Program-made: the position numbers and the translations under genes
DNA from: Sulfitobacter noctilucicola
Lineage (GTDB): Bacteria > Pseudomonadota > Alphaproteobacteria > Rhodobacterales > Rhodobacteraceae
Direction: 5' to 3'
Length of the DNA stretch: 64,000 nt
Assembly (NCBI RefSeq): GCF_000622385.1
Contig: NZ_JASD01000008.1
Location: 3,038,001-3,102,000 of the forward strand
Notes under the pieces: generated by a model
Seen by the model: the letters and a program-made list of their open reading frames with translations, nothing else
Told to the model about the DNA's origin: nothing
The model's database searches: none
Shown here: one piece after another, positions 18,304 through 44,312 of the stretch
How the letters are laid out: every line of letters starts with the position of its first letter
Position numbering within the stretch: the first letter of the stretch is position 1

Positions 18304-18338
18304 AAAATGGCTCCGACGGTAGGGATCGGAGCCATTTT
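18304..18338. repeat. Distal att copy of island A (tRNA-Asn 3' end) within a perfect inverted repeat
   Basis: Bases 18305-18328 repeat, in direct orientation, 24 bp found again at 29558-29581; 21 of these bases (18308-18328) are the 3' end of tRNA-Asn as at 44238-44258. This is the expected footprint of integration into a tRNA gene and marks the left end of the accessory block. The copy also lies in a perfect 13-bp inverted repeat (18304-18316 and 18326-18338, 9-nt loop) because the island side begins GAGCCATTTT. The hairpin with flanking A/T tracts could act as a bidirectional terminator between the epimerase gene and the island. Confidence 0.8.
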
Positions 18339-18636
18339 CAAAGACCTTATAAGCCATTGAAAAATATAGATATGACCGCAACGTAACCGAGGGTGATGTC
18401 GCAGTATGATGCCGCAATTTATCCATAGCCTATACCAGATGCTCACGCAACTGAGGCAGTAAGTTTTTAAGAGTTTTTGAGCTCTCTTGGAAGGTGTATG
18501 GTTGTGTCCGCATCGGACAGGATTTGACAACCGGGGGGCGCAATGTACACGCAATTGGCCGTCCTGCGAATGCACTTAGCTTGACACTCAGCGCTCGATA
18601 GCTCAACTTTAAGTCGAAGAAATATCAAGGCCTAGA
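18339..18636. other. Noncoding left margin of island A
   Basis: About 300 bp with no credible gene. Base composition drops in GC compared with the core to the left. A TTGACA hexamer at 18581-18586 could be a -35 element for the membrane-protein/DGQHR pair, but no good -10 follows at the usual distance, so I do not call a promoter. A purine-rich AAGGCC stretch about 5 nt before the next ATG may serve as its ribosome-binding site. Confidence 0.5.
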
Positions 18637-19191
18637 ATGCTGGATTCGTTGTTGAAAAATTGGCAGGACGCTCTCACCGAGGTCCTTGCGTCGCTACTTG
18701 GGACACTCGGAATTGTTCTTCTAATTGCTCTTGTTCTATCTGGTCAAAGCATTGAGATTGAAGCATCCTCAGCATCCTCAGCATCCTCAGCATCCTCAGC
18801 ATCCTCAGCACCCTCAGCATTCTCAGCATTCTCTCGATACTTCAGCGGGGGCCAGATTGGACTATCGGTTCTTGCTGTTTCTGGGCTCATGTTTCTGGCG
18901 TTGCGGAAACACGGGTCTATGAACTCAATCATCTCAATCGCAATTTACATTCTTTTTCTTGGACCAGTGTTCGCTACTGCGTTTATTGTTGGTTTGAACC
19001 CAGGCTTTGAAAAATCTGTGCTGAGTGAGGTTAACCTTTCGCGCCTGTGGATGTTCTATTTTTGGCTTCATTTCCTTTGGTTTTGCATTCTTTTGCTGGC
19101 ACCCACTATTTTATCAGGGGAAGAGGCGGGAGCGGCAGAAAAAAAGAGGGTTGGAAGTATAGCATTAAAGGCGGCGAAACTTGGAAAGTAA
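18637..19191 (+). CDS. Multi-pass membrane protein with an Ala-Ser-Ser repeat, partner of a DGQHR protein
   Basis: 184 aa. A hydrophobic helix (about 20-37) is followed by SIEIE and a run of ASS/APS/AFS tripeptides (about 43-66), then three more hydrophobic segments (about 73-88, 95-117, 130-160) and a short Lys-rich tail. The tripeptide run is encoded by a 9-bp tandem repeat and would form a flexible periplasmic or cytosolic spacer after the first helix. I recognise no family. The next gene starts one base after this stop, so the two are translationally linked and likely act together. AT-rich codon use differs from the core and points to transfer. Confidence 0.72.
   Translation: MLDSLLKNWQDALTEVLASLLGTLGIVLLIALVLSGQSIEIEASSASSASSASSASSAPSAFSAFSRYFSGGQIGLSVLAVSGLMFLALRKHGSMNSIISIAIYILFLGPVFATAFIVGLNPGFEKSVLSEVNLSRLWMFYFWLHFLWFCILLLAPTILSGEEAGAAEKKRVGSIALKAAKLGK
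18762..18833 (+). repeat. 9-bp in-frame tandem repeat, 8 units
   Basis: The unit AGCATCCTC occurs five times exactly (18762-18806) and three times with one change each (18807-18833). It encodes the Ala-Ser-Ser run of the membrane protein. Nine-bp units keep the reading frame, so copy number could vary by slippage without inactivating the gene. Confidence 0.9.
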
Positions 19192-19192
19192 G

Positions 19193-20380
19193 ATGGAAAA
19201 TGTCCGAATAGCGGTCTCGCGTGTCTCTCAGCCGATCGGAGAATTTTATGTTGGCCGAATAGAGTCGCGTGCACTACGAGCCATTTCATATGTTGAAATT
19301 CGAGAGTTTCTCGAAGGCAAGCAACGAAAGATTGCTGGCATTCAGCGTGAGAGGAATGAAGGCCGCATCAATGAGATTAAGCGCTACGTAAATCTAGAAT
19401 ACGCTACCTTTCCAACTTCCGTTATTATCTCGGTTCCTCCTGAATGCGTCGAATTTGAACCTCTAATAAATGACTCAAGTGGCGAACCATCTTTATTTAA
19501 TATGACACTTCAAACCTTTGGCGAAGAAGGTGAAGAAGACTACACGCCGCTCGACCGTGTTGCTTTCATCATAGATGGCCAGCACCGAGTAGCAGGGTTA
19601 GAGGGCCTACAGGACGGAAAGCTATTTGATGTCAATGTTTCAGTTTTCATAGGCGCGTCAGAGGCGGATAAAGCCGAAATCTTTGCTCGGGTTAATCAGG
19701 CGCAAACAAAGGTGAACCCCAGCCTGGTTGTGGACCTTGCTTCGTTTTATGAAGAACGCGGGCCCATGAAGTTTGCTCACGAAACCATCTTGGCTATGAA
19801 CCATGATGAAGATGGGCCATTTCATGACAAGATTAAGCGACTTGGAAAGGCTGAAGCAGGGAAGGGGCATATTCAAACGCTTGCGCAGGCAACTGTCGTA
19901 AAGCCCGTACTCGACTACATCACGCCGGATCCGGAAGGCGACCGCAATAAGCGTTACAAAGGCATCTTTTCATCGAAGAGGCCCGTAAACGCCTGGACTA
20001 GGCATATCTTCCAGCCCTTCTACGACGACGACAACGATGCGGCAGTTTTTCTCTGCCTTACGAACTACTTCAATGCGGTTAAAGCGAGATGGCCAAAACT
20101 CTGGGACGATGCGCCAGCAGGCACTGTCCTGAACCGAACCACTGGATATGGTGCTCTGATGAAGTTTTTGCGCCCCGTCTATTTGTCTAAATGTGACAAA
20201 GGTGAAATACTGACCCGTGAAGCTTGTGACGAAGTGTTTCGAGGTATCAGCATTCCTGACCGCGAACTAACGAGAGAGCACTTTTTGCCAGGGAGTTCAG
20301 GAGTATCCACGCTCTATAATCGGTTGCTTTCCGAGTCTGGATTGTCGGACAAGCAACCGAAACAACCAACACTCTTGTAG
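19193..20380 (+). CDS. DGQHR-domain protein (DndB/ParB-like fold family)
   Basis: 395 aa from the ATG at 19193, which has GGAAAG 7 nt upstream; a TTG four codons earlier is less likely. The signature DGQHR lies at residues 128-132 within FIIDGQHRVAGL, and the second family motif, ARVNQAQTKVNPSL, about 35 residues later. DGQHR proteins occur in DNA-modification and defence loci (DndB of phosphorothioation, DpdB of deazaguanine insertion) and share a ParB/sulfiredoxin-like core with possible nucleotide use. None of the other Dnd or Dpd genes is present here, so this is a stand-alone version paired with a membrane protein. A defence role is inference from family and context. Confidence 0.8.
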   Translation: MENVRIAVSRVSQPIGEFYVGRIESRALRAISYVEIREFLEGKQRKIAGIQRERNEGRINEIKRYVNLEYATFPTSVIISVPPECVEFEPLINDSSGEPSLFNMTLQTFGEEGEEDYTPLDRVAFIIDGQHRVAGLEGLQDGKLFDVNVSVFIGASEADKAEIFARVNQAQTKVNPSLVVDLASFYEERGPMKFAHETILAMNHDEDGPFHDKIKRLGKAEAGKGHIQTLAQATVVKPVLDYITPDPEGDRNKRYKGIFSSKRPVNAWTRHIFQPFYDDDNDAAVFLCLTNYFNAVKARWPKLWDDAPAGTVLNRTTGYGALMKFLRPVYLSKCDKGEILTREACDEVFRGISIPDRELTREHFLPGSSGVSTLYNRLLSESGLSDKQPKQPTLL

Positions 20381-20393
20381 CTGCAAAGCGCCT

Positions 20394-21686
20394 TCAGAAG
20401 TGCCCGAAATACTTAGCGTGCCATTCTGCAAAGCTGATGTCGAAGTTATGCTCTTTCAGGACTTCTAGTTTTCGACCGTCAAATTGCTTGTCGATCGTAA
20501 CACTACGAATGATAGGTGTGCTACCATTGGGATCGATCCATACCCCTCCACGGTCGAAGGCTTTGTGGTGGTTGGGGCAGAACGGAAGAATGTTAGTCAG
20601 GTGGTCAGGGCCTTTGAAAGGGTCCCCAATTGGCTGAACATGGCCTGCTTCCGAATAGGTTGTTCCTCGAGCATCGACTACAAGCGCTATGCCGCAGATC
20701 GCGCATTTGTTTTCATATGCACTTTTGACCCATGATGCATGTTTCCTGTTGCGGACTTGCCTTTGAGCTTGTGCGTAAACTCGCTGAACTTGAGTAAGTG
20801 TCAGATCTGCAGGTTTCCTGGGTTTTGATGCTTTCTTCGATGCATCAACGCGTCCTGTCGGAAACGCTGATGGTTTAGGAGTAGGGGTTTCAACGTGAAC
20901 ACTTACCAGGCGCTCTGGTCCACCAAGGTCAAGATATTCTTCAATAATCGGCAAAGCTGCAAAAGGAGCAAGTGTCGGGTTCGCCGCCGTTAGAGCCCAA
21001 AAGTCCTCATCTTGAACAAACTGCAGTATATCGGATGCCGAAATACCCATGCCGATTTCGCCATCCATCATACATCGGTCGAGGAACAGAAACAGGGCGC
21101 TGGCCCACCAGTCTTCTCGCTCTGAACTGGTGAGGCCGATAAGGCTTGAGCGATCATATAGGAAATGGAGATTTGTTGCGAATTTGTGCGGGGTATTCCC
21201 ACCATAGATCATGTTTCCTTCCATGAAGGTTTCGATCCGCTCGGTAGTGATCCTACGTGTGTTCCAACTGTTGCCATCCCATACTTCTTCAACAGCAAAT
21301 CTTCTGGCCCAAGGTGCAGGATATGCTTGCCAAGGGCGCGCGCCTCTCCAAGTGCCAACGCGGCTGAAGTTAAGCGCGGACATAGCTAACCGATCGAAAG
21401 ATTGATCGTGAGGGTTCGCTAGAGCCTCGAGAACCAGCTGATCAGGGATAATATAGTTTTCTCCGTCAATCTCTTGGTTGTAAAGAAAAAAATTCAGAGG
21501 GATAAGTGGGTCGCCGGTGGCGACCCTTGAGATAGTTGCTCGCGCGTTATCTCGAGGAACAGGCGTCATTTGTCCGTTGAAGATGGCATTGATCACTCGA
21601 TGAAGCAAAGTAAGGCCGGGGGCTGCACCCCAACCAAAATTTTTAGAGAAAGATCCGGGGCGGCTTTCGAGTGTAGTCCAGTCCAA
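20394..21686 (-). CDS. HNH endonuclease with a large unassigned N-terminal region
   Basis: 430 aa. The C-terminal HNH fold has zinc ligands C328-x2-C331 and C370-x2-H373 and the catalytic-type motif AGHVQPIGDPFKGPDHLTNILPFCPNHHKAFD (His 349, Asn 365, His 374). The first ~270 residues (beginning FSKNFGWGAAPGLTLLHRVINAIF) fit no family I can name and probably recognise DNA or a partner. A basic Lys/Pro/Ala linker (about 268-293) joins the two parts. It is 13 bp from the convergent DGQHR gene and 23 bp downstream of the MT-A70 gene on its own strand, so it is most likely the nuclease of a restriction-modification unit. Confidence 0.82.
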   Translation of the reverse strand: MDWTTLESRPGSFSKNFGWGAAPGLTLLHRVINAIFNGQMTPVPRDNARATISRVATGDPLIPLNFFLYNQEIDGENYIIPDQLVLEALANPHDQSFDRLAMSALNFSRVGTWRGARPWQAYPAPWARRFAVEEVWDGNSWNTRRITTERIETFMEGNMIYGGNTPHKFATNLHFLYDRSSLIGLTSSEREDWWASALFLFLDRCMMDGEIGMGISASDILQFVQDEDFWALTAANPTLAPFAALPIIEEYLDLGGPERLVSVHVETPTPKPSAFPTGRVDASKKASKPRKPADLTLTQVQRVYAQAQRQVRNRKHASWVKSAYENKCAICGIALVVDARGTTYSEAGHVQPIGDPFKGPDHLTNILPFCPNHHKAFDRGGVWIDPNGSTPIIRSVTIDKQFDGRKLEVLKEHNFDISFAEWHAKYFGHF

Positions 21687-21709: not shown

Positions 21710-22366
21710 CTATTCAGAAGAGACACTAGAGTTATATGAGTAGGTTTTCCAGCTCGGTTTGTAATCTGCACCTGCCTCGTTGCCCCAGACAGTCCATCCC
21801 TGTCGAACCCCTCGACCGAAGAGTTCCAAAAATGGTCCCCACGAGCATTCTTCGATGATACTGTACTGTTCATCGGGCTTCCGGCTGTGCTCGCGCTTGC
21901 GCGTTTTGAAAATATCCCCGTCTGGCTCTGGTGCTTCCATGTAGTTCACTTGAGAGCGGCCAGGGCTAAGCGTACGTACGTTCTTACCGCGGGTACCAAA
22001 GAGTAATATCTCGGTAACATTGCGGAAATAGAAGCCTACTCCTCGTCCGTCTGGGCCACCGTCTTTACGAACTTTCTCCCAGATGATGTTCGACTTGTAT
22101 TCGAAACCCCAAGCTTTGAGGACTTGCAAGCCTTCAGGTAGCAGCGCATTTGGCACCCAAAGGTAGCAATGAGCTCTATCTGTGAGGTGATTTGCTACGG
22201 ATAGATCGCAGATCTCTTCTAGCGCCATTGTCGAATAGCGCGCCAAGCGCTTATGTTCTGGTGAAACTTTTCCCGTACGGTTTTGAAAACGCCAAGGCGG
22301 ATCCGCCATGACGGTGGAGAATTTGTCGGTGCCAAGAAACTGGCTGAGATCATTAGAGGCGGTCAT
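21710..22366 (-). CDS. MT-A70 family N6-adenine DNA methyltransferase
   Basis: 218 aa. The catalytic DPPW motif is at residues 22-25 (MADPPWRF), followed by CYLWVPNALLPEGLQVLKAWGF and NIIWEK, the usual order in MT-A70 methyltransferases of phages and mobile elements. It would place a methyl group on N6 of adenine in DNA. AAGGAC lies about 7 nt before the ATG. The D12-class methyltransferase gene is 167 bp upstream and the HNH gene 23 bp downstream on the same strand, suggesting one transcript. Whether it protects against the HNH nuclease or modifies a different site is not visible. Confidence 0.85.
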   Translation of the reverse strand: MTASNDLSQFLGTDKFSTVMADPPWRFQNRTGKVSPEHKRLARYSTMALEEICDLSVANHLTDRAHCYLWVPNALLPEGLQVLKAWGFEYKSNIIWEKVRKDGGPDGRGVGFYFRNVTEILLFGTRGKNVRTLSPGRSQVNYMEAPEPDGDIFKTRKREHSRKPDEQYSIIEECSWGPFLELFGRGVRQGWTVWGNEAGADYKPSWKTYSYNSSVSSE

Positions 22367-22533: not shown

Positions 22534-23736
22534 CTAAGCGCGCACGAGAAGTAGCCCTTCCTTCACACTACGTTGTCTATCTTCCTTCCGGCCCATTGTC
22601 ATGTGCTCGTGATCTGTTGTCAGGATTTCAATTTTCTTATTGGGCAAGGCCTTTTCACCAATCGCTAGAAGCTCATCCAATGAGATCATCCCTGTGTTTG
22701 AATAACTGAGCACGAGGGACGAGTCGCTCGCCTTGACACCTTCAAAAAGGTCTATAAATGCGCCACGAACTTGGGATTTGATGCAGAAAGGGGACTGATG
22801 GCGTTCCTCGCGGTAACGCCCTTTCACAACTTTTCCTCTTTGGGTTTGAAGCTTCGGAAAGTCATATAGGACCAGCGTTTCCAGTGCGTGGTAAAAGCGG
22901 CTGTAATGGACAAAACAATACGGGGGGTCCGCGTAGACCGTACCGCCCCCGAAGTTCTTGAGGCAGTCCTTGAAGTCGAGGGCAGTGGATTGATGGGGTG
23001 CGATTACTGGTCGATCAGGGATGTACTCTAATACGTCGTTGTACTTTCGTTCGAAATACTGGCCAATGGAGCGCTTGCGATAGATCAGGATGTCCTTGTG
23101 TGATGAATGTGTCTTGGCATCCCTATACTGAGCGTAATGCCCTGTCCCTTGACTTGCATAAGCCATAGCGAACATCAGCGACGACATTATGACGGGATAG
23201 ATTGGGGTGGATCGGAAGCCCTCAGCAACCTCCCTTAGGGCATCAATCCAGAGGCATTGTTCGTAGCTCCACCAAGTCCCAGAATAGTTCTTTGCGAACA
23301 AGTGCCATCTGTAATCAAAATCCTGCGTCATGAGCGCCCTCTGGTGTTCCTCATGTTCGTTGAAGACCGCGAACGGCATATCGCTACCGTAGTCCACCAC
23401 CAGCTTGCGCTTGCGGCGCTCTAGGATATCATCAGCAAGCGCCAAAAGGTGGTCAGCGCTTGGCGTCGTCTGATCGCGATAGGCTCGGTTGTAGGTATCA
23501 GCGAGTAAGCCAGAATAGGATTGAATGTCGTTTGAGACGACTGTGGCTTGCTGTCCAATCGCACCTGATAAAGAACCGCTTCCTGAGAACAAGTCACATA
23601 TTGGGCGGTCGTCGCGTACGTGGTTGATGCCATTAAGAACGAATCCAATGATTTTGGACTTTGACCCCATGTACTTAACAAGGCTTGGGTATTCCTGCAC
23701 TTTCAGGCAATGTGAGTCTTGGACAGTTGTAGGCAA
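22534..23736 (-). CDS. D12-class N6-adenine DNA methyltransferase
   Basis: 400 aa, longer than Dam (278 aa). Motifs are KYMGSKSKI (about 21), FSGSGSLSG for SAM binding (50-58) and the catalytic DPPY (270-273) followed by CFVHYSRFYHALE. The extra length lies between the SAM and catalytic motifs (about 90-260), where target recognition probably sits. It heads the leftward methylase-methylase-nuclease unit and is divergent from the XRE regulator; the palindrome between the two genes would control both. The recognised sequence cannot be read from the protein. Confidence 0.85.
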   Translation of the reverse strand: MPTTVQDSHCLKVQEYPSLVKYMGSKSKIIGFVLNGINHVRDDRPICDLFSGSGSLSGAIGQQATVVSNDIQSYSGLLADTYNRAYRDQTTPSADHLLALADDILERRKRKLVVDYGSDMPFAVFNEHEEHQRALMTQDFDYRWHLFAKNYSGTWWSYEQCLWIDALREVAEGFRSTPIYPVIMSSLMFAMAYASQGTGHYAQYRDAKTHSSHKDILIYRKRSIGQYFERKYNDVLEYIPDRPVIAPHQSTALDFKDCLKNFGGGTVYADPPYCFVHYSRFYHALETLVLYDFPKLQTQRGKVVKGRYREERHQSPFCIKSQVRGAFIDLFEGVKASDSSLVLSYSNTGMISLDELLAIGEKALPNKKIEILTTDHEHMTMGRKEDRQRSVKEGLLLVRA

Positions 23737-23753
23737 GGCTTTGCACTCCGGCG

Positions 23754-24166: not shown

Positions 24167-25099
24167 TTAAATCAGCCTCGGGTTGCTCAGCCCTTCGACC
24201 AGAGTTTCAACCATCCTTTCAACTTGCCGCAGTGATACGCGAGCATGCTTTTTCTCAAGCATGCGCAGCCCCTCGTTCAGCAGTTCGCCGCCAAGATCAT
24301 GCTGATCATCGAGCAAGCGGTCGCGCAGCAGGCGGGTTCCGGCGGCAGCCAGATGGTCAAAGCTCGGGGTATCCAGACGGATGATCTTGCAGCGGTCCAG
24401 AAAGGCAGCGGGCATATGGTCGACCGAATTCGTGGTCATGATCCAGCTCACTTGCGTCAGGTCGAAAGGGAGTTGGTAGAACGGGCAGGACCATGCGCGG
24501 GCCGTGGTCGGCTCGATCATGCTTTTCAAGACTTCAAATGCGCCGGGCAGCTTGCCGCCGCCGCTGGTGGCTACCTGTTCCGGGATTTTGTCGACCTCGT
24601 CCAGGATCACTAGCGGGTTCGCAATACGCTCGCGCAGCATTGTCCGCACCACGCGACCGGGCGTGGCGGAGCCCCAACCGCGCTCAACGCCTGACACCGA
24701 AAAGGTCGCGCCATTACTTGCGCCCACGTCGATATCGACCGATGGCACGTTGAACACCCGACACAGATCACGCGCCCAGCTTGATTTCGCGATACCGGGT
24801 GGACCAAGGAGGATCAGCGGCGGTGTAAGTAAAGGGGCGGGGCCGGTGAGGGTGCGCAGCCGCATTTGCTTCATGACCGCCGTTGAAGCCGAGGCCAGCC
24901 ATGGATAGATCGCGTGCAAATTTGCGATCAGCTCTTCCATCTGGTCACGGTCAACCACGCCAACTGCACGGGCGTCGTTGGCGGCTGCGAGCAGTGGATC
25001 GCGGTCGTCGCGTTTGAGGTGGTTCAACCGCTCAAGGCTCTCCGTGCGGCGGCGCATGTAGCGGCGGCTCCAAGTGATCGCTCGGCTGGGTGTCCCCAC
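24167..25099 (-). CDS. AAA+ ATPase of island A
   Basis: 310 aa. Walker A is GPPGIAKSS (99-107), Walker B LVILDEVD (163-170), and sensor 1 is in WIMTTNSVDHMP; a helical lid follows to the C-terminus. The arrangement resembles Lon- or MoxR-type AAA+ modules without a protease part. The first ~50 residues are basic. It follows the 70-aa gene by 15 bp on the same strand and precedes nothing obvious, so the two form a small operon facing away from the relaxase gene. Role unknown; a part in mobilization, stability or defence are all possible. Confidence 0.75.
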   Translation of the reverse strand: MGTPSRAITWSRRYMRRRTESLERLNHLKRDDRDPLLAAANDARAVGVVDRDQMEELIANLHAIYPWLASASTAVMKQMRLRTLTGPAPLLTPPLILLGPPGIAKSSWARDLCRVFNVPSVDIDVGASNGATFSVSGVERGWGSATPGRVVRTMLRERIANPLVILDEVDKIPEQVATSGGGKLPGAFEVLKSMIEPTTARAWSCPFYQLPFDLTQVSWIMTTNSVDHMPAAFLDRCKIIRLDTPSFDHLAAAGTRLLRDRLLDDQHDLGGELLNEGLRMLEKKHARVSLRQVERMVETLVEGLSNPRLI

Positions 25100-25327: not shown

Positions 25328-25833
25328 GGGGGAGGGCCTTTCATTCGCCCCAGAAGGGGCAGCATTCGATTACAGAGCAGCAGCCGTCATGGACCCGGAA
25401 AGGGTCTTATGAGCCTATGCGACTAATTCGAATGGAAAGGTGCTTCATCATGCAGATATGTATAGTGGGCCGACCGCGATGGATGCAAGGAGGAAATATT
25501 TGCTTGATGTTGTGGCATTCAAAGCCGCTCTCAACGCGTTGTAAGAAAAACAATTTTGCATAACGTTAGGGTCCAGCAGTCTGCTGGTCGCAGGAGGATC
25601 AGGAAGGGCTTGGCCCGGACGGATCTGACGAGAAGGGGGCTCGGGGGTATCCCCTGAGCGAACGTCATGTTGTGGGAGGGGCCTTGCCCCGACCGCAACA
25701 TGTCTAGTGAGTAGCGCAGCGGCAATTCTCACGGGTTCGTGATGCTTAATCCACAGAAAACCGCCGCGACTTGTGCCGGGATTTTCAGGGCTATCGGGTA
25801 TTCTTGGGGAAAGCAGATAACCCGAGGTTCACC
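25328..25833. other. Noncoding region between the ATPase operon and the relaxase gene
   Basis: About 500 bp between divergent genes, with no convincing gene. It must hold promoters for both directions. Two nested inverted repeats near its centre are listed separately as a possible oriT. A possible in-frame extension of the relaxase begins at 25771, but the ATG at 25834 gives the expected relaxase N-terminus. Confidence 0.5.
25640..25702. promoter_or_regulatory. Candidate origin of transfer (oriT) beside the relaxase gene
   Basis: Two inverted repeats lie side by side. The first (25640-25658) has an 8-bp stem with one G-U pair and a 3-nt loop. The second (25666-25702) has perfect outer arms CATGTTG/CAACATG and a perfect inner stem GGGGC/GCCCC with a 3-nt loop. 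Relaxase targets usually combine such repeats with a nick site within a few hundred bp upstream of the relaxase gene, as here. No nick sequence is recognised, so the call rests on structure and position. Confidence 0.4.
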
Positions 25834-27666
25834 ATGTCCGTTCATGCCAAGTTTGACAATCCCCGACCCGTCGACGTCACAAAGCCGCCAATTGTGCTGC
25901 GGTTCCAAGGACTGCATCCGGACAACCTCGGCCGCTTCGATATGCATGATCATCGCAACGGTGGTGACCTCTCTCATGTTGATCTGGATGCGTCAGAGCT
26001 GAATGAGGTTCTGCATTGCGAACCCAAATGGCAGGACACGATTAAGACTGAAGTCGCTGCTGCAAAGCGCAACAATTTCCGTGAGCGGATGGAGGCCTTA
26101 CGGAAGAAGGGCCGCAAAGCCGAACGCGAGGCGCTCATCGCCGAAGGGGAAAGCGATCCCTGGCGGCGGTGTTCCGGCGGTCCCTTGCGTGAGGGTATCC
26201 TTACGGTCAACAAAGAATGGTTCGGCGGGACCGGGCAAGCCGAATGGGACGCGGAGAAGGTTGCCGCGTTCAAGAAAGCTGCGATGGACTTTCTGCTCAA
26301 GCACTTTCCGGCGGGGCAGTTGCGCTATGCCAATGCGCATCATGACGAGGAGGCCTTTCATATCCATTTCGTTGCGGTGGTCTGGACAGAGAAAGTCACC
26401 GCAAATCGCGGGCTGCAGGTTTTGTTGCAGGCCTCATTGAACCCGCTTTTGAAGAATTACGAACGTGCGCAGGATCTGGCAGGAGAGGCTTTCGCCCCCC
26501 TTGGCATCGCTCGAGGGGAACGGCGGGCCGAGGCGCGGCGGGTGGCGAAAGAGACTGGCAAAGACGTGCCCGAAAAGCGCCGCCATATCCCGCCTTCGGA
26601 ATGGCGTGCCGATCAGCAGGCCGCGGGCCATGAGAAATCCAGCGAGATTTTGGATGCTGCACAGAGCAAAGCCAAAGAGATGGTCGATGAAGGACGGACC
26701 GTCGGCAAGGCCACGATCCGGAAATCGCGCAAACGTGCGGTCAAGGAGGCGCGTCGCAGGAAAGAGGCCGCGACGCGCGAGGTGGCGGCGGCAGAGCGCC
26801 GCCGCAAAGAAGAGGAGCGGGCAGCGGATAGCGCCCGCAAAGAGCGGGCTGATGCCGAAGCTACGCTCGGTATCATCGAAGAAAAGGCAGCAAATATTGT
26901 TCAGACAGCGCAAGCGGCGGCGGGAGAGATTCAGCAGGTGAAGGAGGAGATGGGTGTTGAGGTCGAGAAATTGCAGGGGGTGAGGGCGGAAACAGAAAAG
27001 GCAAAGACAGGGCTGGCTGATGTGTTGGTGGAGGTTGAGTGCGCTGCGTTGGAACGGGATCAGGTTAAGGATGAGGTGGCGGAGCAGGGCCACAAGCTTG
27101 ATCTCCTTCGGTCGGCGGCGAAGAAGGAAAGTGAGGAATTGGCCCTGGCTTCAAGAAAAATTCGGTCACTGAGGTCGGCAAGGCAGGCCGAAGCGCTGGC
27201 TTTAGACACGGAGAAAAGAAAGCGGGCGGTGGCAGAGGCTGAGTTGGCGGATGTAGAGGCCAAGGTGGTGACTGCAGAGGCAAAACTCTCAAAGGCGGTG
27301 TCTTTGATCAAAACGCTGGTGGAAGGCATCGATATGCTTGGCGGTGCCGTCTTGCGCTGGATATCGGGGCCAAAGCCAAGCGAGGAAAAGCTGGGCTGGG
27401 GGCCGAATGCGCCGAAAACCAAAGAGGACCGCAGGCGGATTGCGGCACGCATTCAGCCTGTGATGCCGAAACTGATCCCCCTCGCGCAATCAATCAGCCG
27501 CACGATTGAAGAAACCTTGAGCCTCGAGCGCGCAAAGATTGCCGCAGATGCAGCATATGTTCTCGAACAGCGCGAGAAAATGGAGGCGGAGCAACGGGCC
27601 GAGTTGACCCGCATTCTGAATGCAAACTCAGAAACCGACCCGACGTCTGACGGGCCGGGGACATGA
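25834..27666 (+). CDS. mobV: MobV-type relaxase (plasmid mobilization/Pre family)
   Basis: 610 aa from the ATG at 25834. The metal-binding motif HHDEEAFHIH (169-178) matches the HxDExxPHxH pattern of MobV/Pre relaxases, with Phe in place of Pro. The C-terminal half is a very long charged coiled coil (about 270-500), Lys/Arg/Glu/Ala-rich, usual for dimerisation in this family. It would nick one strand at oriT to start conjugative transfer of the island with help from another element, since no type IV secretion genes are present. Its stop is directly adjacent to the convergent integrase stop. The catalytic Tyr or His of the N-terminus was not assigned. Confidence 0.78.
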   Translation: MSVHAKFDNPRPVDVTKPPIVLRFQGLHPDNLGRFDMHDHRNGGDLSHVDLDASELNEVLHCEPKWQDTIKTEVAAAKRNNFRERMEALRKKGRKAEREALIAEGESDPWRRCSGGPLREGILTVNKEWFGGTGQAEWDAEKVAAFKKAAMDFLLKHFPAGQLRYANAHHDEEAFHIHFVAVVWTEKVTANRGLQVLLQASLNPLLKNYERAQDLAGEAFAPLGIARGERRAEARRVAKETGKDVPEKRRHIPPSEWRADQQAAGHEKSSEILDAAQSKAKEMVDEGRTVGKATIRKSRKRAVKEARRRKEAATREVAAAERRRKEEERAADSARKERADAEATLGIIEEKAANIVQTAQAAAGEIQQVKEEMGVEVEKLQGVRAETEKAKTGLADVLVEVECAALERDQVKDEVAEQGHKLDLLRSAAKKESEELALASRKIRSLRSARQAEALALDTEKRKRAVAEAELADVEAKVVTAEAKLSKAVSLIKTLVEGIDMLGGAVLRWISGPKPSEEKLGWGPNAPKTKEDRRRIAARIQPVMPKLIPLAQSISRTIEETLSLERAKIAADAAYVLEQREKMEAEQRAELTRILNANSETDPTSDGPGT

Positions 27667-29466: not shown

Positions 29467-29557
29467 GCCATCTGGCTACAGGAGGATGTAACACCCTGAT
29501 GCCACACCTACGAAGCCACGCTGTGACTTCGGTAGGTATTTCAACAACTTACGTTGT

Positions 29558-29609
29558 AAATGGCTCCGACGGTAGGGATCGAACCTACGACCAATTGATT
29601 AACAGTCAA
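29558..29609. repeat. Middle att copy: tRNA-Asn 3' half
   Basis: Bases 29561-29609 are identical (49 bp) to 44238-44286, the 3' part of tRNA-Asn from the encoded CCA through the anticodon loop; identity stops two bases past the GTT anticodon. Bases 29558-29581 match 18305-18328 (24 bp). The copy lacks the 5' half of the tRNA, so it is an integration scar and not a functional gene. It separates island A from island B. Confidence 0.92.
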
Positions 29610-29676: not shown

Positions 29677-29758
29677 TTTTGCAACGATAATCAATCGGTT
29701 GACAGTGCGCCGGAATGCGCCTTAGTGACGTGGTGCGTTGCAAAACGTTGCAAAAACG
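29677..29758. promoter_or_regulatory. Candidate integrase arm-type sites, left end of island B
   Basis: The motif GTTGCAAAA occurs twice in direct repeat at 29738-29755 (GCGTTGCAAAACG then CGTTGCAAAAACG) and once inverted at 29677-29686 (TTTTGCAACG). A nearly identical double copy lies at 44159-44183 beside the right att site. Repeats placed at both ends of an element near the crossover point are typical arm-binding sites of tyrosine integrases; this role is inferred. Confidence 0.5.
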
Positions 29759-34662: not shown

Positions 34663-34766
34663 ATTCATCTCACGAGCGCAACGGTGCGTCGCTCCTGATC
34701 TGTCCATCACAGGTTGAGCGTGGCGTCCCGATGCTGCGCTCAACTCTGGACACAAAGGAGCATCCC

Positions 34767-35405
34767 ATGCCCGACGATACCACTGCCGCCCTGCAAGCCC
34801 TCATGCAGCAGGTTCAAACCCTCACAACCACTGTCACTGATCAGGCGAAACGCCTCGACGACCTGCGCGAGTTCAACTCGCGTGTTCTGGACGAGAAGAA
34901 GGATATGCAGCGCCAGCTCGAAACCTCGAAAAAGAAAACCCTCGTGGACATCATCAACGACGAAACCCACGAGCGCAAAATGCACGCGGCAGGCCTCGAA
35001 CAGGACGCCGATGGTAACTGGTATCCCAAAGGCGTGCGACCACCCCACAGCTTGACCCGCGAGGATGCTCGCGACCCGGCCAAGTATCGCGCAGCGAAGG
35101 AAGCGGCGGAGAAGGCAGGCGCGACCTTGACTGTGATCGACAGTGGCAACGGTGACGTGACGACACGCAACACCAGTCGCCCCACTGTCACCCCAACCAA
35201 AACGTTCACCTTTGACGACACGCACGAACGCGTCCGGTATTTGCGCGCTGACATGCAAACAGGCAACGGCATCGTGAACCGCCGGATGCAGGCGGAGAAA
35301 GAGGGGTACACGATCAAAACCTTCCACTCGCCTGACGAATTACCTGCGCACGCCCGCACGAAGTTTGACCTGATGGAGCGTGCGGCAAACGCTGAGTCCT
35401 CCTAA
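34767..35405 (+). CDS. Coiled-coil phage-like protein upstream of the small terminase
   Basis: 212 aa from the ATG at 34767, which has AAAGGAG 6 nt before it. A coiled coil spans about residues 8-60 (LMQQVQTLTTTVTDQAKRLDDLREFNS), then comes a Lys/Glu-rich middle, a Thr-rich linker (NTSRPTVTPTKTFTF) and a C-terminal segment RVRYLRADMQTGNGIVNRRM. No recognised family; a scaffold- or head-associated protein would fit but is not shown. Its TAA shares its last base with the ATG of the next gene (TAATG). Confidence 0.6.
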   Translation: MPDDTTAALQALMQQVQTLTTTVTDQAKRLDDLREFNSRVLDEKKDMQRQLETSKKKTLVDIINDETHERKMHAAGLEQDADGNWYPKGVRPPHSLTREDARDPAKYRAAKEAAEKAGATLTVIDSGNGDVTTRNTSRPTVTPTKTFTFDDTHERVRYLRADMQTGNGIVNRRMQAEKEGYTIKTFHSPDELPAHARTKFDLMERAANAESS

Positions 35406-35980
35406 TGGCAAGGGGCGGCAACAAACACTCTGGCCGTCGTGCGATTATCGACATGCGTGCGGACAAGAACGAGATCATCAAGGACATTGTTCTCGAACGC
35501 CGTTCGCTTGCTGAGATCGCTCGCCGCCTTGGCGTCGATTACACGACGGTGCAACGGTATCGGGACGACAAGATCACCGAAGAAATGCGCCGCGAGATCA
35601 TGGCCGAGAACCGTATCGCTGCCATCGAAGCGGACACTGAGGTGATCAACCAAGACCGTATGGACATTGCCATGACCTACGAGTCCTTGGCGAAGCGGGT
35701 CGAACGCTTGATCACCAAGGCAGAGCAAACCGAAGACGACTCCTTTGCGCTGGCGGCAATGGAAGGCTTGCGCAAGGTGTTGCGGGACATTGCAACGATG
35801 CAAGGCAAACTCGCGACGAACCTGACCGTCAACGTGTCTCTGGCCGAAAGCAAAGAGTGGGTCACGCTTCGAACCATCTTGCAGGAAGTGTGCGACGAAA
35901 TTCCTGCCGCCCGCGAACCGCTCCTGCGCCGGATGCGCCACCACGTCCTGTCCGTCACGAAGGAGGACACAATCCTATGA
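35405..35980 (+). CDS. Probable terminase small subunit (HTH protein)
   Basis: 191 aa. Residues about 18-65 form a helix-turn-helix (KDIVLERRSLAEIARRLGVDYTTVQRYRDDKI) that would bind DNA; the rest is helical with a long central region (about 70-150) that could oligomerise. The arrangement HTH plus helical oligomerisation region, one gene before the large terminase, is that of small terminase subunits that select the packaging site. Sequence identity to a named TerS is not asserted. The stop overlaps the next ATG (ATGA). Confidence 0.6.
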   Translation: MARGGNKHSGRRAIIDMRADKNEIIKDIVLERRSLAEIARRLGVDYTTVQRYRDDKITEEMRREIMAENRIAAIEADTEVINQDRMDIAMTYESLAKRVERLITKAEQTEDDSFALAAMEGLRKVLRDIATMQGKLATNLTVNVSLAESKEWVTLRTILQEVCDEIPAAREPLLRRMRHHVLSVTKEDTIL

Positions 35981-36219
35981 CCCATCGTGAATTTGAAGGT
36001 TGGGACGCCCACGCACAGCGCGTCACGGCGGCGTCAACGGCAGGCAACCCCGACTGGGCGCGACTGCCCCACGCGAAACGCATCATGGTCGCGGAAGGCG
36101 GCAAACTGTTCTTCACTGGCAACGCGTGTAAACGCGGACACATCTCGCCGCGCAACCAGCATGGCGATTGCACCCAATGTCACTTGATGCGCCTTGCGGA
36201 GCGTCGCGATGCCGTTTGA
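35977..36219 (+). CDS. Small Cys/His protein next to terminase
   Basis: 80 aa, MTHREFEGWDAHAQ to AERRDAV. The C-terminal part contains C-x3-H...C-x2-C-H (CKRGHISPRNQHGDCTQCH), a small zinc-binding unit found in phage and HNH-like proteins. It lacks the full HNH catalytic set, so nuclease activity is unlikely or would be atypical. The gene overlaps the previous stop (ATGA) and its end overlaps the start of the large-terminase ATPase ORF by 11 bp. Small HNH-type proteins beside terminase genes are common in phages with cos ends; whether this one serves that role is open. Confidence 0.6.
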   Translation: MTHREFEGWDAHAQRVTAASTAGNPDWARLPHAKRIMVAEGGKLFFTGNACKRGHISPRNQHGDCTQCHLMRLAERRDAV

Positions 36220-36994
36220 TGCGCTCCGCGACTTTTGCAGCCTGATCGAACGCGACCTCGATCCCGGTGCGGAGATGCTTCACTTCCTGCGACAGGAGGT
36301 GCCGACCGCCACGCATGTTGACCCTTGGCAAGTTGAGGCGATCACGTCTGACGCGCAAACGGTTGCACTGCTCGTGTGCCGTCAGGCGGGTAAATCCTGC
36401 GTCCTCGCGACACGCGGCGTTCGCGAATTGAAGCGCGGCGGCACGATCATTTGCGTCGCCCCCGCCGAACGTCAGACGCGCGAGATCACACGTAAAGTGC
36501 AAGCATACCTGCGCGCAACTGACCTCGTGGTTGAGCGGGCGACGCAAACGGAAATCGAATGCTCGAACGGCGGACGTTTCATCGCTGTGCCTGCGTCGGG
36601 TGCAACCATTCGGGGTTACACTGCCGACTTGCTTCTCGTGGACGAAATGGCATATTTGCCCGGTACGAACGGCGGCGAAGATGTGGTTGTGTCGATCCTG
36701 CCAATGCTGCGCGACAACGGGCAAACGTTCTACGCCTCAACGCCTGCCGGAAAGAACAACCTGTTCGCCAGCCTGTTCCTCGAACCGAAAGACAGCGTGC
36801 ATAGGATCAAGGTGCCGGGAACGTCGATCCCGCGTCTTGCCTCACGCGTTGAACGCCTTCGGGAGCAGTTGTCAGCAACCCGTTTTAGACAAGAGGTTTT
36901 GTGCGAATTTCTATCGGACGGGCTGTCTTATTTCGACCTGTCCGCGATTGAGAACGCGACCAGCATGGAGAACGCTATATGTCCTCGCTTTTGA
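36209..36994 (+). CDS. terL: Large terminase, ATPase half (separate ORF)
   Basis: 261 aa. Walker A-like CRQAGKSC (57-64), Walker B LLLVDEMAYL (141-150) and the motif III stretch FYASTPAGKNNLF (about 178) are those of the DNA-packaging ATPase of phage large terminases. Nothing nuclease-like follows; the frame ends 30 residues after the last conserved ATPase segment. The nuclease domain is encoded by the next ORF in another frame, overlapping by 16 bp. I use the ATG at 36209; a TTG at 36194 is possible. The typical single-chain TerL (450-500 aa) equals the sum of the two ORFs. Confidence 0.82.
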   Translation: MPFDALRDFCSLIERDLDPGAEMLHFLRQEVPTATHVDPWQVEAITSDAQTVALLVCRQAGKSCVLATRGVRELKRGGTIICVAPAERQTREITRKVQAYLRATDLVVERATQTEIECSNGGRFIAVPASGATIRGYTADLLLVDEMAYLPGTNGGEDVVVSILPMLRDNGQTFYASTPAGKNNLFASLFLEPKDSVHRIKVPGTSIPRLASRVERLREQLSATRFRQEVLCEFLSDGLSYFDLSAIENATSMENAICPRF

Positions 36995-37695
36995 ACCTCA
37001 ACTACATGCCTGACGGTCGCGTGATCAACGAGACCGGACATGACCCCGCAATCGAGAGAGTGACCGGATTTGTCAGATACTTCGTCGGTGCCGATTTGGG
37101 GCAGGCGAATGACTTCTCGTCTGCTGTGGTGATCAAGGATCAGCAATTGCCCATCCATGATGGAACCCGCGTCAAACTCGGCCCGCGCGAGCGCACGGTC
37201 GTCTTTGCCGACAAGTTTCGCGGGGTGTCCTACGTCGATGTGGTCGACTACCTGATCCGCTTGCGCAACGCGCCGCCGTTCGGTGGCAAGTCGCAACTCG
37301 TTATCGACGGCACGTCCATCGGGCGCGTTGTGTCGGACATGATGCACGAGCAGTCGGTAGATCATACGGCGGTGCAAATGACTGGCGGTCAGGAGTGGCG
37401 TCGGTCAGGGCGATACGTCAACGCAAGCAAAACCTTGATGATCGAAAACCTCGCCGTCCTGTTCGCGTCAGGCGACCTCAAGTTTGCCCACGACCTGCCT
37501 TTGCGCTCCGAGATCGAAGAAGACCTTGCCTCGTTCACCACGCAGACGACAGCGGCGGGCAACCAGATCATCACGCAATCGCGCAATGCCTCTGGTCACG
37601 GTGATACGGGCATTGCCTTGATCGTCGCCGCCTTCGCATCGCAATACCTCATGCCGCAAAGCATCCGCGTCAGCAAACTGGTCGGGATGTACTAG
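36979..37695 (+). CDS. terL: Large terminase, nuclease half (separate ORF)
   Basis: 238 aa. The RNase H-like nuclease of TerL is visible: VGADLGQANDFSSAVVI near the N-terminus (first catalytic Asp), LVIDGTSIGRVVSDMM (second Asp) and a late SGHGDTGIALIVAAFA (third Asp). It starts with an ATG inside the 3' end of the ATPase ORF, in the -1 frame relative to it. The two could be made as separate subunits, joined by frameshifting, or result from a disabling indel. Conservation of all three acidic positions in the second ORF argues against long decay. Confidence 0.8.
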   Translation: MSSLLNLNYMPDGRVINETGHDPAIERVTGFVRYFVGADLGQANDFSSAVVIKDQQLPIHDGTRVKLGPRERTVVFADKFRGVSYVDVVDYLIRLRNAPPFGGKSQLVIDGTSIGRVVSDMMHEQSVDHTAVQMTGGQEWRRSGRYVNASKTLMIENLAVLFASGDLKFAHDLPLRSEIEEDLASFTTQTTAAGNQIITQSRNASGHGDTGIALIVAAFASQYLMPQSIRVSKLVGMY

Positions 37696-41177: not shown

Positions 41178-41299
41178 TGTGTCACTCCGTTGATGTGTTC
41201 CCGAAATGTTCCGGGCATAACTGAGTTATCGGACCTGTCCCCGGCGCTGCTCAACCGGAAATATTGCTGAGGTTGTTTGGACGTGGTATCGCCCAACCT

Positions 41300-42202
41300 A
41301 TGCAAACAATTGACCGCCTTTTTCAAGCTGCAAAGCAGCGATACGATGCTTCCCAGCCTTCACTGGCTGAGTGCTATGAAATTACTCGCGCGTGCCTGAC
41401 AAAACTCAACACGGAAGCGACGCTCCGGCGATTTGGTGAATTTCGAGGTGCGCCCAATCTTGAATATTGGGTAGCAGAGGGAAACGGGAATTTGAGTCGC
41501 CCCTATCGTCCCGAAATGTTCATTTCTGACCTAGCGGAATTTGAGCGTGCGGTAGTCAGTTTCCAAGATCAGATGGACGACGACGACATAACAGACCCGG
41601 TAACGTTTGAGAAAGTCGTCTACACGGTCGTGTCCTCGTTTTGCCTTTGCTACGATGTTTGGAAGCCAAAGAGCAGGAAAACACCGGGCACGTTCTTCGA
41701 GGTGTTTATTGGTTCAGTTTGTCAAATTCGCTACCCGCAACCGCGCTTCCAAATGACCAAACACATTCCCATCGTTGTCGAGGTGCCTGATGCCGACGCG
41801 GTAGACGACGGGGCGCTTCAAGGCAATTCGGTGTCGACTGACTTGGTAATTACAAATACTGTGACTCAGCAAGGAGCGGTAATTCCGCTAAAGATCACCA
41901 CGCGGGAACGCATCGTGCAGCCGTTCGCGCATCAACGTATTTTAGACAGCGCCTATCCCGGTCGGTATCGCAGCTATTTGACCTGCATTAGTGAGGTGCA
42001 GCGGGACGACAAGACAACTACAGTCAAACAAATTTGCGTGCCCGGAACGGTCGCACTTTTCCAAAAACACCTATCTGAACTCAGCGGCTTGTACTACTGT
42101 GATATTCCTCAACGATATGCACGACAGGACTTCACTGCGCTGATCCGTGTTACGGGCATCGCCAACCTATTCGATGATATTGACGACTGGCTAAACCGCT
42201 AA
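41300..42202 (+). CDS. Probable type II restriction endonuclease paired with the cytosine methyltransferase
   Basis: 300 aa from the ATG at 41300; a TTG at 41264 is an alternative. FFEVFIGSV (about 133-141), STDLVIT (about 179-185) and IPLKITTRERI (about 195-205) are spaced like the acidic-acidic-Lys active site of restriction nucleases, though the last motif has Leu where Glu/Gln is usual. The gene ends 12 bp inside the convergent cytosine methyltransferase gene, the classic arrangement of a restriction-modification pair. GC is lower than in the packaging genes. I do not recognise the specificity; the functional call rests mainly on the partner. Confidence 0.55.
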   Translation: MQTIDRLFQAAKQRYDASQPSLAECYEITRACLTKLNTEATLRRFGEFRGAPNLEYWVAEGNGNLSRPYRPEMFISDLAEFERAVVSFQDQMDDDDITDPVTFEKVVYTVVSSFCLCYDVWKPKSRKTPGTFFEVFIGSVCQIRYPQPRFQMTKHIPIVVEVPDADAVDDGALQGNSVSTDLVITNTVTQQGAVIPLKITTRERIVQPFAHQRILDSAYPGRYRSYLTCISEVQRDDKTTTVKQICVPGTVALFQKHLSELSGLYYCDIPQRYARQDFTALIRVTGIANLFDDIDDWLNR

Positions 42203-43294
42203 AGCCATCTGCCGACCATTGAATTCTTGGTCAGGATGCTTGCCGATGACTTTCTCGTTCTCATTGTTCAGAATGGCGCGAATTGCACGACCTGCCGCCT
42301 CAGCAAGGGGTGGGGGAACAGCATTGCCAACCTGGGTGCGCACGTCCATTCGATTGCCGTAAAACCTGAACCAATCAGGGAAGCCTTGAAGCCTCGCAGC
42401 TTCGCGGGGTGTAATCGCCCGGTTCTGTTCTGGGTGGCCGTATCGCCCTCGCGTGAAACTGTCGAAACCGACTGTCACGGTCGGGCAAACGCCTTCCCAT
42501 GTCAGGCGCCCGTAAACATCAGGCCAGCCACCTTTCTTAGGGTCAGTGACTTGGTGGCAGGGCAGTCGCAATTCCCAAGGTATATCCTGCCAGCCACCTC
42601 CTTGTGGGACGTGGGAAATACGCTCCTCATTCGCCTTGCTGATTCTGCATTTCAGATGATTGTGGAACTCGAGGTGCTCAGAGCAATCATCTGGAGGCGG
42701 TGGCATATTTGCGATCACATCACGCACCGATTTCTTTTCACTCGCGATGGGTAGGACGGGAATACGAGAGGACACATCCTTGCGGATGCCGATCATCAGG
42801 AACCTGCTGCGCGATTGTGCCAAGCCGAAGCTGGTTCCGCAGACAAAGTAACCATAGACCGCATAGTCGGTCAGGTCGTCCATCATTTCTTGAATTAGGT
42901 GCTGCCCGCGTTTCTGTCCGAATATTTGGACGTTCTCGAAAAGAAATGCGCGAGGGTTCAACTCACGCACCAGTCGGGCGTAATGTATAACCAGAGAATT
43001 GCGCGGATCTTGAAAACGATCTGCACCTCGTTTCTGTTTGGAGAAACCTTGGCAAGGCGGGCCTCCAGAAAACAGATCGAGTTGGCCGGGTGATAGGCCC
43101 GCCAATTCTAATAGGTCACTACCGGACACCATCGACGCGTCTAAAACCTGCCCTGTTTCACCTAAGTTGTTGTTGTGAGTTTCGATGTGTGCCGCAACGT
43201 TGTCGAACGCTACTCGGACGTCGTAGCCCGCAAGATCAAGGCCATGAGACATGCCGCCCGCACCGCAAAAACTCTCAATTGATGTAAGTGACAA
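42191..43294 (-). CDS. DNA (cytosine-5) methyltransferase
   Basis: 367 aa with the ordered C5-methyltransferase motifs: I FCGAGGMSHGL, IV GGPPCQGFSKQK (catalytic Cys81), VI ENV (about 118), VIII (about 165, QSRSRFLMIGIRKD), IX/X GFPDWFRFYGNRMDVRTQVGNAVPPPLAEAAGRAI. It methylates C5 of a cytosine in a short target sequence set by the region before motif IX. The neighbouring convergent gene overlaps its 3' end by 12 bp and is the likely nuclease. Target sequence unknown. Confidence 0.92.
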   Translation of the reverse strand: MSLTSIESFCGAGGMSHGLDLAGYDVRVAFDNVAAHIETHNNNLGETGQVLDASMVSGSDLLELAGLSPGQLDLFSGGPPCQGFSKQKRGADRFQDPRNSLVIHYARLVRELNPRAFLFENVQIFGQKRGQHLIQEMMDDLTDYAVYGYFVCGTSFGLAQSRSRFLMIGIRKDVSSRIPVLPIASEKKSVRDVIANMPPPPDDCSEHLEFHNHLKCRISKANEERISHVPQGGGWQDIPWELRLPCHQVTDPKKGGWPDVYGRLTWEGVCPTVTVGFDSFTRGRYGHPEQNRAITPREAARLQGFPDWFRFYGNRMDVRTQVGNAVPPPLAEAAGRAIRAILNNENEKVIGKHPDQEFNGRQMALAV

Positions 43295-44131: not shown

Positions 44132-44158
44132 TGCGCCATTTACCGATCATACCTTGCA

Positions 44159-44183
44159 GCGTTGCAAAATCGTTGCAAAAACG
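44159..44183. promoter_or_regulatory. Candidate integrase arm-type sites, right end of island B
   Basis: GTTGCAAAA occurs twice in direct repeat (44161-44169 and 44172-44180), differing from the left-end pair at 29735-29758 by one inserted T between the copies. Position 55 bp inside the right att border mirrors the left end. Binding by the island B integrase is inferred. Confidence 0.5.
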
Positions 44184-44189
44184 AAAAAA

Positions 44190-44214
44190 GGCGAACCCGA
44201 AGGTTCGCCCATTT
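44190..44214 (+). terminator. Terminator after the XRE regulator
   Basis: A perfect 8-bp stem (GGCGAACC 44190-44197, GGTTCGCC 44202-44209) with a CGAA tetraloop is followed by CATTTTG and preceded by AAAAAA, so it can stop transcripts in both directions. It isolates the island from the tRNA-Asn gene. Confidence 0.8.
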
Positions 44215-44237
44215 TGCTTAACTATCAAGTAGTTAAT

Positions 44238-44312
44238 TGGCTCCGACGGTAGGGATCGAACCTACGACCAATTGATTAACAGTCAACTGCTCTACCGCTG
44301 AGCTACGTCGGA
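44238..44312 (-). tRNA. tRNA-Asn (GUU anticodon)
   Basis: 75 nt including an encoded CCA. The acceptor stem is TCCGACG/CGTCGGA with discriminator G; the D-loop segment TAGCTCAGCGGTAGAGC, the anticodon loop with GTT, and the T-loop GGTTCGATCC are all present. It is the intact gene; its 3' 49 bases recur at 29561-29609 and the last 21 at 18308-18328. It is the insertion site of both islands, which entered at the 3' side and left the gene whole. Confidence 0.97.

What the first reader, a model, noticed from the sequence alone, without database searches (positions are those of the whole stretch)
18305..44312. Two unrelated mobile islands stacked in tandem at one tRNA-Asn gene
Three copies of the tRNA-Asn 3' end, in direct orientation, mark a 24-bp left junction (18305-18328), a 49-bp middle junction (29561-29609) and the intact gene (44238-44312). 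Each interval has its own tyrosine integrase, both beside the middle copy. The integrases differ, and the identity blocks have different lengths (24 and 49 bp), so the two insertions are separate events at the same site. Such tandem arrays can excise singly or together and can carry each other.
Basis: partly seen in the sequence, partly recalled or inferred. Interest (0 to 1): 0.72.

Follow-up and report, generated by a model that had tools for sequence, protein, structure and literature searches.

The report
Two mobile islands stacked at tRNA-Asn
Two unrelated mobile DNA elements, a probable mobilizable island and a probable phage satellite, sit side by side at one tRNA gene because their integrases seem to read different parts of that gene; the stacking is ordinary, but the satellite belongs to a family whose DNA-packaging motor is coded by two separate genes.

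Summary
The 21-bp 3' end of the tRNA-Asn gene (44238-44312, -) occurs three times in direct orientation (18308, 29561, 44238); the middle copy extends to 49 bp. Relatives show two separate elements. B-type elements with the same 49-bp repeat sit at tRNA-Asn without A in G171, G094 and G192. A-type elements abut the intact tRNA in G011, G033, G269 and G072. In G269 (probably Monaibacterium marinum) A and a B-type element stack in the opposite order. Each element has its own conserved putative integrase arm sites. A (11.3 kb) looks like an integrative mobilizable element: MobV-like relaxase, restriction/DGQHR-type cargo. B (14.7 kb) looks like a PICI-type satellite: int, AlpA, probable TerS, TerL as separate ATPase and nuclease genes, no capsid gene found, restriction cargo. 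B's nuclease half was found at 54-97% identity in 34 loci, nearly all Rhodobacteraceae, and has no match in 50,697 phage records. Nested cores (anticodon loop for B, T-arm for A) explain both orders. Tandem accretion is well known, so the array is ordinary; B's family and the order-dependent trapping it predicts are the interesting parts. Excision is predicted, not shown.

The parts
18308..18328 (+). Outer (left) att copy of element A: 21-bp T-arm core, 24 bp identical to the middle copy; part of a 14-bp-arm hairpin (18303-18339)
   Evidence: the A-side flank is conserved in G269 (77.6% over 196 bp) and G033 (82.8% over 157 bp)
18394..18416 (+). Putative intA arm-type site pair TGATGTCGCA / TGATGCCGCA, 13 bp apart
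   Evidence: a like pair with the same spacing in G269 and G033
19181..20380 (+). DGQHR / DndB-DpdB-like protein, cargo of A
20394..21686 (-). HNH_2 endonuclease, weakly like a phosphorothioate-DNA restriction enzyme (below cut-off), cargo of A
21710..22366 (-). MT-A70 DNA methyltransferase, cargo of A
22534..23736 (-). D12-class N6-adenine methyltransferase, cargo of A
24167..25099 (-). Lon-like AAA ATPase, shared by 3 of 5 A-type relatives (G269, both G072 copies; not found in G011 or G033)
25771..27666 (+). Mob_Pre / MobV-like relaxase of A
   Evidence: NCBIfam MobV 30.8 bits, below the 100-bit cut-off
27667..29466 (-). intA, DUF6538-type tyrosine recombinase, 599 aa
   Evidence: relatives
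29484..29506 (+). Putative intA arm-type site pair GGATGTAACA / TGATGCCACA, 13 bp apart
   Evidence: like pair in G269, G033, G011, G072 (two copies)
29561..29609 (+). Shared middle att copy: 49 bp of the tRNA-Asn 3' part from the anticodon loop; inner end of A and outer end of B
29677..29755 (.). Putative intB arm-type sites GTTGCAAAA (29677 -, 29737 +, 29747 +)
29770..30918 (+). intB, tyrosine recombinase, 382 aa
31083..31355 (+). AlpA-like HTH regulator
31322..32614 (+). 430-aa protein in the position where relatives have primases; no family match of its own
   Evidence: position only; relatives; no match
34731..35405 (+). Family-specific coiled-coil protein (B224), unknown function
35405..35980 (+). 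Probable small terminase (HTH + long helices)
   Evidence: weak
36194..36994 (+). TerL ATPase half (separate gene)
36979..37695 (+). TerL nuclease half (separate gene overlapping by 16 bases, with its own Shine-Dalgarno-like GGAG)
41264..42202 (+). Type II restriction enzyme, cargo of B
42191..43294 (-). C5-cytosine methyltransferase, cargo of B
44161..44180 (+). Putative intB arm-type sites (44161, 44172)
44184..44209 (-). Hairpin with T-run supplied by B downstream of the tRNA (probable replacement terminator)
44238..44312 (-). Intact tRNA-Asn(GTT), inner end of B

Best explanation
Two unrelated site-specific elements accreted at one tRNA-Asn gene. B, a PICI-like phage satellite, recombines at the anticodon loop (TTGA-CTGTTAA-TCAA) and so copies 49 bp of the gene. 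A, an integrative mobilizable element with a MobV-like relaxase, recombines in the T-arm region (TGGCTCCGA-CGGTAGGGA-TCG) and copies 21 bp. Because A's core lies inside B's copied block, A can enter either flank of a resident B, while B can enter only the intact gene. That gives both observed orders. Shown: three att copies, independent relatives, both orders, separate conserved end motifs. Inferred: crossover positions, the role of the motifs as arm sites, transfer by conjugation (A) or helper virions (B), and excision. Predicted: in the window order each element has a complete pair of core and arm sites and can leave alone. In the reversed order (G269) B's tRNA-side border has no anticodon core, so A traps B until A leaves.
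For: Three copies, not by chance. B-type elements with 49-bp repeats at tRNA-Asn in L130 (13.65 kb), L131 (16.0 kb), L132 (14.6 kb); no A protein or A end within them or in the 0.7-1.5 kb fetched beyond the outer copy. A-type elements abutting the intact tRNA-Asn in L127/G269, L129/G072, L134/G011, L194/G033. A's outer end conserved in G269 and G033. G269 order tRNA-A-23 bp-B, with B's right end 95% identical over 102 bp and TerL halves about 97% identical. Arm-like pairs: A's in the window, G269 and G033 at both ends, and in G011 and two G072 copies at the end fetched; B's at both ends in 13 of 22 delimited relatives plus the window. G008, G006 and G010 keep the window's flanking genes with tRNA-Asn 0.8-2.1 kb from the aldose epimerase and no island-sized insert.
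Against: No read or PCR evidence of excision. Nine of 22 delimited B relatives have no GTTGCAAAA near either end, so arm sites differ within the family. In G269 intB is missing from the assembly (best hit E 6e-4; the contig ends inside B), so B may be decayed there and the reversed array is only partly seen. The empty-site comparison is thin: of 21 same-genus genomes only 4 have a close (55-57%) aldose epimerase, 3 beside tRNA-Asn and one (G014) 97 kb away, and the intergenic DNA does not align, so the exact junction rests on the conserved element ends. The loose pattern GATGYMRCA is not enriched (11 seen, 7.1 expected). The MobV score is below the curated cut-off. In G033 the relaxase match covers only its C-terminal half, and the AAA gene is missing from G033 and from the part of G011 fetched.
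Confidence: 0.87

Rival explanations
1. One composite 26-kb element with an internal tRNA fragment.
For: Both islands are contiguous and both integrases face the same middle copy.
Against: A and B occur apart and in both orders in relatives; each has its own end motifs.
Confidence: 0.03
2. Two elements, but both are immobile relics and the array is frozen.
For: No excision data; tandem neighbours are generally decayed elements according to PMC5704250 (section read).
Against: Both integrase genes are full-length; intA keeps the residues expected for catalysis and intB does by eye only (sequence printed, not aligned). Cores and end motifs are present at both ends of both elements.
Confidence: 0.25
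3. B is a decaying prophage that has lost its capsid genes, not a satellite.
For: It keeps terminase genes; TerL-N has 127 matching phage records, all below 60% identity, best-ranked 34.5%.
Against: Twenty-two of 34 related loci are delimited at 13.1-16.0 kb (median 14.6) with a shared int-AlpA-primase-TerS-TerL order and no conserved gene identified as a head gene. TerL-C finds no match in 50,697 phage records and only 23-27% identity in IMG/VR.
Confidence: 0.15
4. The left 21-24-bp copy is only a terminator hairpin resembling the tRNA end, so A has no outer att site.
For: It forms a perfect 14-bp-arm hairpin (z -7.2).
Against: The same core stands at the outer ends of the A-type elements in G269 and G033, followed by A-specific DNA and the motif pair; similar copies occur in G011 C31 and G374.
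Confidence: 0.03

Closest known systems
Tandem accretion of IMEs/ICEs/satellites at tRNA genes (PMC5704250, section 2.3, read; IME_Sag2603_tRNAlys)
   Same: An IME in tandem with an unrelated element at a tRNA 3' end, with distantly related tyrosine integrases and a chimeric middle att site.
   Different: Here the partner is a satellite-like element, both orders are seen in one bacterial family, and the two cores are nested at different arms of the tRNA.
Gram-negative PICIs (PMC6092414, passages read)
   Same: int, AlpA, primase/replication, sometimes TerS, accessory genes.
   Different: B also encodes both halves of TerL; relationship by sequence was not tested; induction and packaging unknown; the window's own replication protein is unidentified.
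cf-PICIs and the Streptomyces satellites MulchRoom/MiniFlayer (PMC10690885, passages read)
   Same: Satellites carrying their own small and large terminase.
   Different: Those also encode portal and capsid; none found in B, and B's TerL is two genes.
IMEs with MobV relaxase (recalled as a kind)
   Same: Integrase plus MobV-like relaxase plus cargo between att sites.
   Different: DUF6538 integrase; relaxase scores below the MobV cut-off; a Lon-like AAA in some members.

Membership tests
Tandem accretion at a tRNA gene | Three or more direct copies of the target-gene end delimiting elements with their own recombinases | tested here: met
Tandem accretion at a tRNA gene | Elements also found independently at the same site | tested here: met
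Tandem accretion at a tRNA gene | Site-specific excision of single and composite circles | not testable with these tools
   no reads available
Integrative mobilizable element (A) | Integrase and att sites | tested here: met
Integrative mobilizable element (A) | Relaxase | tested here: inconclusive
   Mob_Pre E 3e-6, 27.7 bits against a cut-off of 25.5; MobV below cut-off; HHDEEAFHIH resembles a MobV motif recalled from memory
Integrative mobilizable element (A) | oriT and transfer with a helper conjugative element | not tested
   -
PICI (B) | int, AlpA/MerR-type regulator, primase-replication module | tested here: inconclusive
   int and AlpA-like gene present (AlpA model itself just below its cut-off, HTH_17 above); primase only in relatives; the window's 430-aa protein has no family match
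PICI (B) | No structural (capsid/tail) genes | tested here: met
   18 B ORFs in Pfam (10, 8) and 10 of them in PHROGs: only terminase among virion/packaging families; remaining small ORFs not scanned
PICI (B) | Phage-dependent induction and packaging | not testable with these tools
   -
cf-PICI (B) | Encodes its own capsid, portal and head genes | tested here: not met
   (same 18 ORFs)

The most novel reading that the evidence does not exclude
B represents an undescribed Rhodobacteraceae satellite family that brings its own packaging motor, TerS plus a two-polypeptide TerL, but steals the capsid. Nested att sub-sites make the order of arrival decide which neighbour can leave: an IME that lands on the tRNA side locks the satellite in.
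Probability: 0.4. Interest if true: 0.7.

Novelty: new variant of a known kind. Interest (0 to 1): 0.48.

Why it matters
It gives a natural two-element system at one attB, with single elements and both stacking orders available in related bacteria, so rules of accretion and of who can excise can be tested directly. The satellite family would be the first I know of (from memory, not an exhaustive literature claim) with a terminase motor split into separate ATPase and nuclease genes and no capsid genes, useful for asking how far the two TerL domains must be tethered. The stacking itself is a known phenomenon.

Tried and rejected
Composite single element: rejected by relatives. Left copy as a mere terminator: rejected by conserved A ends in G269 and G033. 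Programmed frameshift for TerL: set aside, not excluded, because the downstream gene has a GGAG-spacer-start signal in 28 of 32 TerL-N genes (31 loci plus the window; L151, L154, L169, L171 lack it by that pattern). B224 fold: AlphaFold2 model of low pTM (0.34), no Foldseek match with E <= 0.001 in BFVD. TerS fold: pLDDT 68, pTM 0.40, no PDB match with E <= 0.001; phage protein phBC6A51 (2ao9) at E about 0.5, only suggestive; the TerS profile found no convincing PDB sequence. intA profile: no PDB sequence match at E <= 0.01. Naming the organism: it was not named by any collection searched. The family is inferred as Rhodobacteraceae because same-family handles G269, G192 and G171 have contigs of the same lengths as records of Monaibacterium marinum, Aliishimia ponticola and a Rhodobacteraceae MAG (contig lengths for G269, G171 and G192; records). 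Literature: searches returned nothing and 65 one paper seen only as a listing; 67, 68, 73, 98 and 99 were seen as listings of 10-15 titles out of 39, 3,263, 201, 178 and 44; passages of PMC5704250, PMC10690885, PMC4936722 and PMC6092414 and one whole section of PMC5704250 were read. None of the passages seen describes a two-gene TerL in a satellite, but most of the literature was not read.
Full report
Observation. The window holds one tRNA-Asn(GTT) gene at 44238-44312 (-). Its 3' end recurs in direct orientation at 29561 (49 bp) and 18308 (21 bp; 24 bp when compared with the middle copy), and nowhere else in the 4.09-Mb genome as an exact match. Two unrelated tyrosine integrases flank the middle copy: intA (27667-29466, -; 599 aa, DUF6538) and intB (29770-30918, +; 382 aa).

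What the relatives show. In same-genus genomes G008, G006 and G010 the window's flanking genes surround the tRNA without an island: metallo-beta-lactamase-fold gene, tRNA-Asn, then the aldose epimerase 0.8-2.1 kb further. This comparison is thin: of 21 same-genus genomes, four have a close aldose epimerase (55-57% identity), and in the fourth, G014, it lies 97 kb from the tRNA. B-type elements occur at tRNA-Asn in G171 (L130), G094 (L131) and G192 (L132): intB 90-93% identical, the same 49-bp repeat with one mismatch, 13.65-16.0 kb, no A protein within them or in the 0.7-1.5 kb fetched beyond the outer copy. A-type elements abut the intact tRNA in G011 (intA 91%), G033 (95%), G269 (89%) and G072 (82%), with the same end sequence that in the window abuts the middle copy. 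The outer end of A is conserved too: 77.6% over 196 bp in G269 and 82.8% over 157 bp in G033, including the 21-bp core. In G269 the DNA beyond A's outer core is 95% identical over 102 bp to B's right end, and the TerL halves follow at about 97% amino-acid identity, so the two kinds are stacked there as tRNA-A-B, the reverse of the window's tRNA-B-A. The contig ends inside B and intB was not found in that assembly (best E 6e-4). G033 carries a second, 53%-identical A-family integrase beyond its 21-bp copy.

How common. In the genus, 59 of 62 genomes contain the core (searched with two R positions; the backward control pattern gave none); 19 of 62 have two or more copies and 7 of 62 three or more (tallied by me and summed). 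In G024, G026, G032, G011, G015 and G016 copies lie on different contigs, and in G014 and G002 some lie 100 kb or more apart, so not all are arrays. G358's three copies include two full-length genes. G356 and G374 show arrays with integrases 30-55% identical to intA. Repeated insertion at this gene is therefore recurrent.

Why two orders. The conserved blocks end in different arms of the tRNA: B's 49 bp reach the anticodon loop, A's 21 bp stop in the T-arm. This fits known preferences of tyrosine integrases for tRNA arms (recalled). Each element has its own putative arm sites: GTTGCAAAA for B (5 of 6 window occurrences lie within 200 bp of B's ends, 0.87 expected in the whole window), found at both ends in 13 of 22 delimited relatives and at neither end in the other 9; TGATGYMRCA-like pairs 13 bp apart for A at both ends in the window, G269 and G033, and at the end available in G011 and both G072 copies. 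The loose pattern GATGYMRCA is not enriched (11 seen, 7.1 expected), and TGATGYCRCA (6 seen, 0.87 expected) has 3 of its 6 hits outside A, so for A the stronger evidence is conservation of the pair and its spacing. Since A's core is nested in B's copied block, A can use either of B's flanks; B needs the intact gene. In the window order each element keeps both cores and both arm sets. In G269 B's tRNA-side border is only the 23-bp copy, which predicts that B cannot excise alone. This is inference.

What A is. MobV-like relaxase (Mob_Pre E 3e-6; NCBIfam MobV below cut-off), Lon-like AAA, DUF6538 integrase, plus DGQHR/DpdB-like protein, HNH nuclease and two adenine methyltransferases. Integrase and relaxase are shared by all five A-type relatives examined (G269, G072 twice, G011, G033), the relaxase only in its C-terminal half in G033; the AAA was found in 3 of the 5. 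The G269 element carries a type I restriction system and a GmrSD-type protein instead. A is best read as an integrative mobilizable element with exchangeable defence-type cargo.

What B is. int, AlpA-like regulator, a 430-aa protein where relatives have archaeo-eukaryotic primases, a coiled-coil protein, a probable TerS, TerL ATPase and TerL nuclease genes, then a type II restriction pair. Profiles of the TerL halves match T4 gp17 (E 0.001) and a phage terminase large subunit, 5m1q (E 0.005; that this is the nuclease domain of phage G20c is recalled). The genes overlap by 16 bases in the window, and 28 of 32 TerL-N genes end with a GGAG-start signal for the second gene, so two polypeptides are likely. 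Of 36 genome loci found with TerL-C, 34 have 54-97% identity (33 contigs; 32 loci in records named as Rhodobacteraceae or genera that I recall as belonging there, one Anderseniella MAG, one 'Proteobacteria' MAG) and two are distant, in records of other bacteria. TerL-C has no hit in 50,697 phage records and only 23-27% identity in 18 IMG/VR loci. Twenty-two of the 34 are delimited by a tRNA gene and a 38-62-bp repeat: Asn 12, Thr 7, Lys 2, Ala 1; 13.1-16.0 kb. L146, with a 38-bp, 89% repeat and the tRNA in the other orientation, is doubtful; L142 and L151 are the genomes of L130 and L132. In these 22 plus the window the ORF caller shows TerL-N in 22, int in 22, TerL-C in 21, TerS in 15, AlpA in 14 of 23 (some misses may be caller errors). 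No capsid gene was found among the proteins scanned (window: 18 ORFs in Pfam, 10 in PHROGs; relatives: selected proteins, not whole elements). B works like a PICI-type satellite; membership is not established because induction and packaging are untested.

Verdict. [quoted passage not shown] What raises interest is the satellite family with a two-gene TerL, and the testable order rule.

Noticed in passing
window 36194-37695: Large terminase split into overlapping ATPase and nuclease genes, conserved across most of the B family.
   Followed up: yes
window 18303-18339: A's outer att core forms a perfect 14-bp-arm hairpin (z -7.2); similar inverted repeats at copies in G011 C31 and G374, possibly the integrase core-site symmetry.
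   Followed up: partly
window 44184-44209: B brings a hairpin with a T-run downstream of the tRNA, apparently standing in for the hairpin seen after the tRNA in G008.
   Followed up: partly
L148 and L155 (OX638333.1, Roseovarius MAG): Two B-family elements head to tail, about 14 kb apart, the second ending at a tRNA-Thr.
   Followed up: partly
L128 and L129 (G072): Two A-type elements 118 kb apart; the far one abuts a sequence resembling an A outer end, suggesting a long array.
   Followed up: partly
L150 10735-12351; L164 11165-13111; L131 12431-16922: The stretch between TerL and the tRNA in B relatives holds a reverse transcriptase, a UvrD-like helicase, or methyltransferases with a NO VEIN-domain protein.
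   Followed up: partly
window 19181-21686: DGQHR/DpdB-like gene beside an HNH nuclease weakly similar to a phosphorothioate-DNA restriction enzyme; no other dnd gene was identified among the A proteins scanned.
   Followed up: no
window 38731-40023: Family 2 glycosyltransferase inside the satellite-like element.
   Followed up: no
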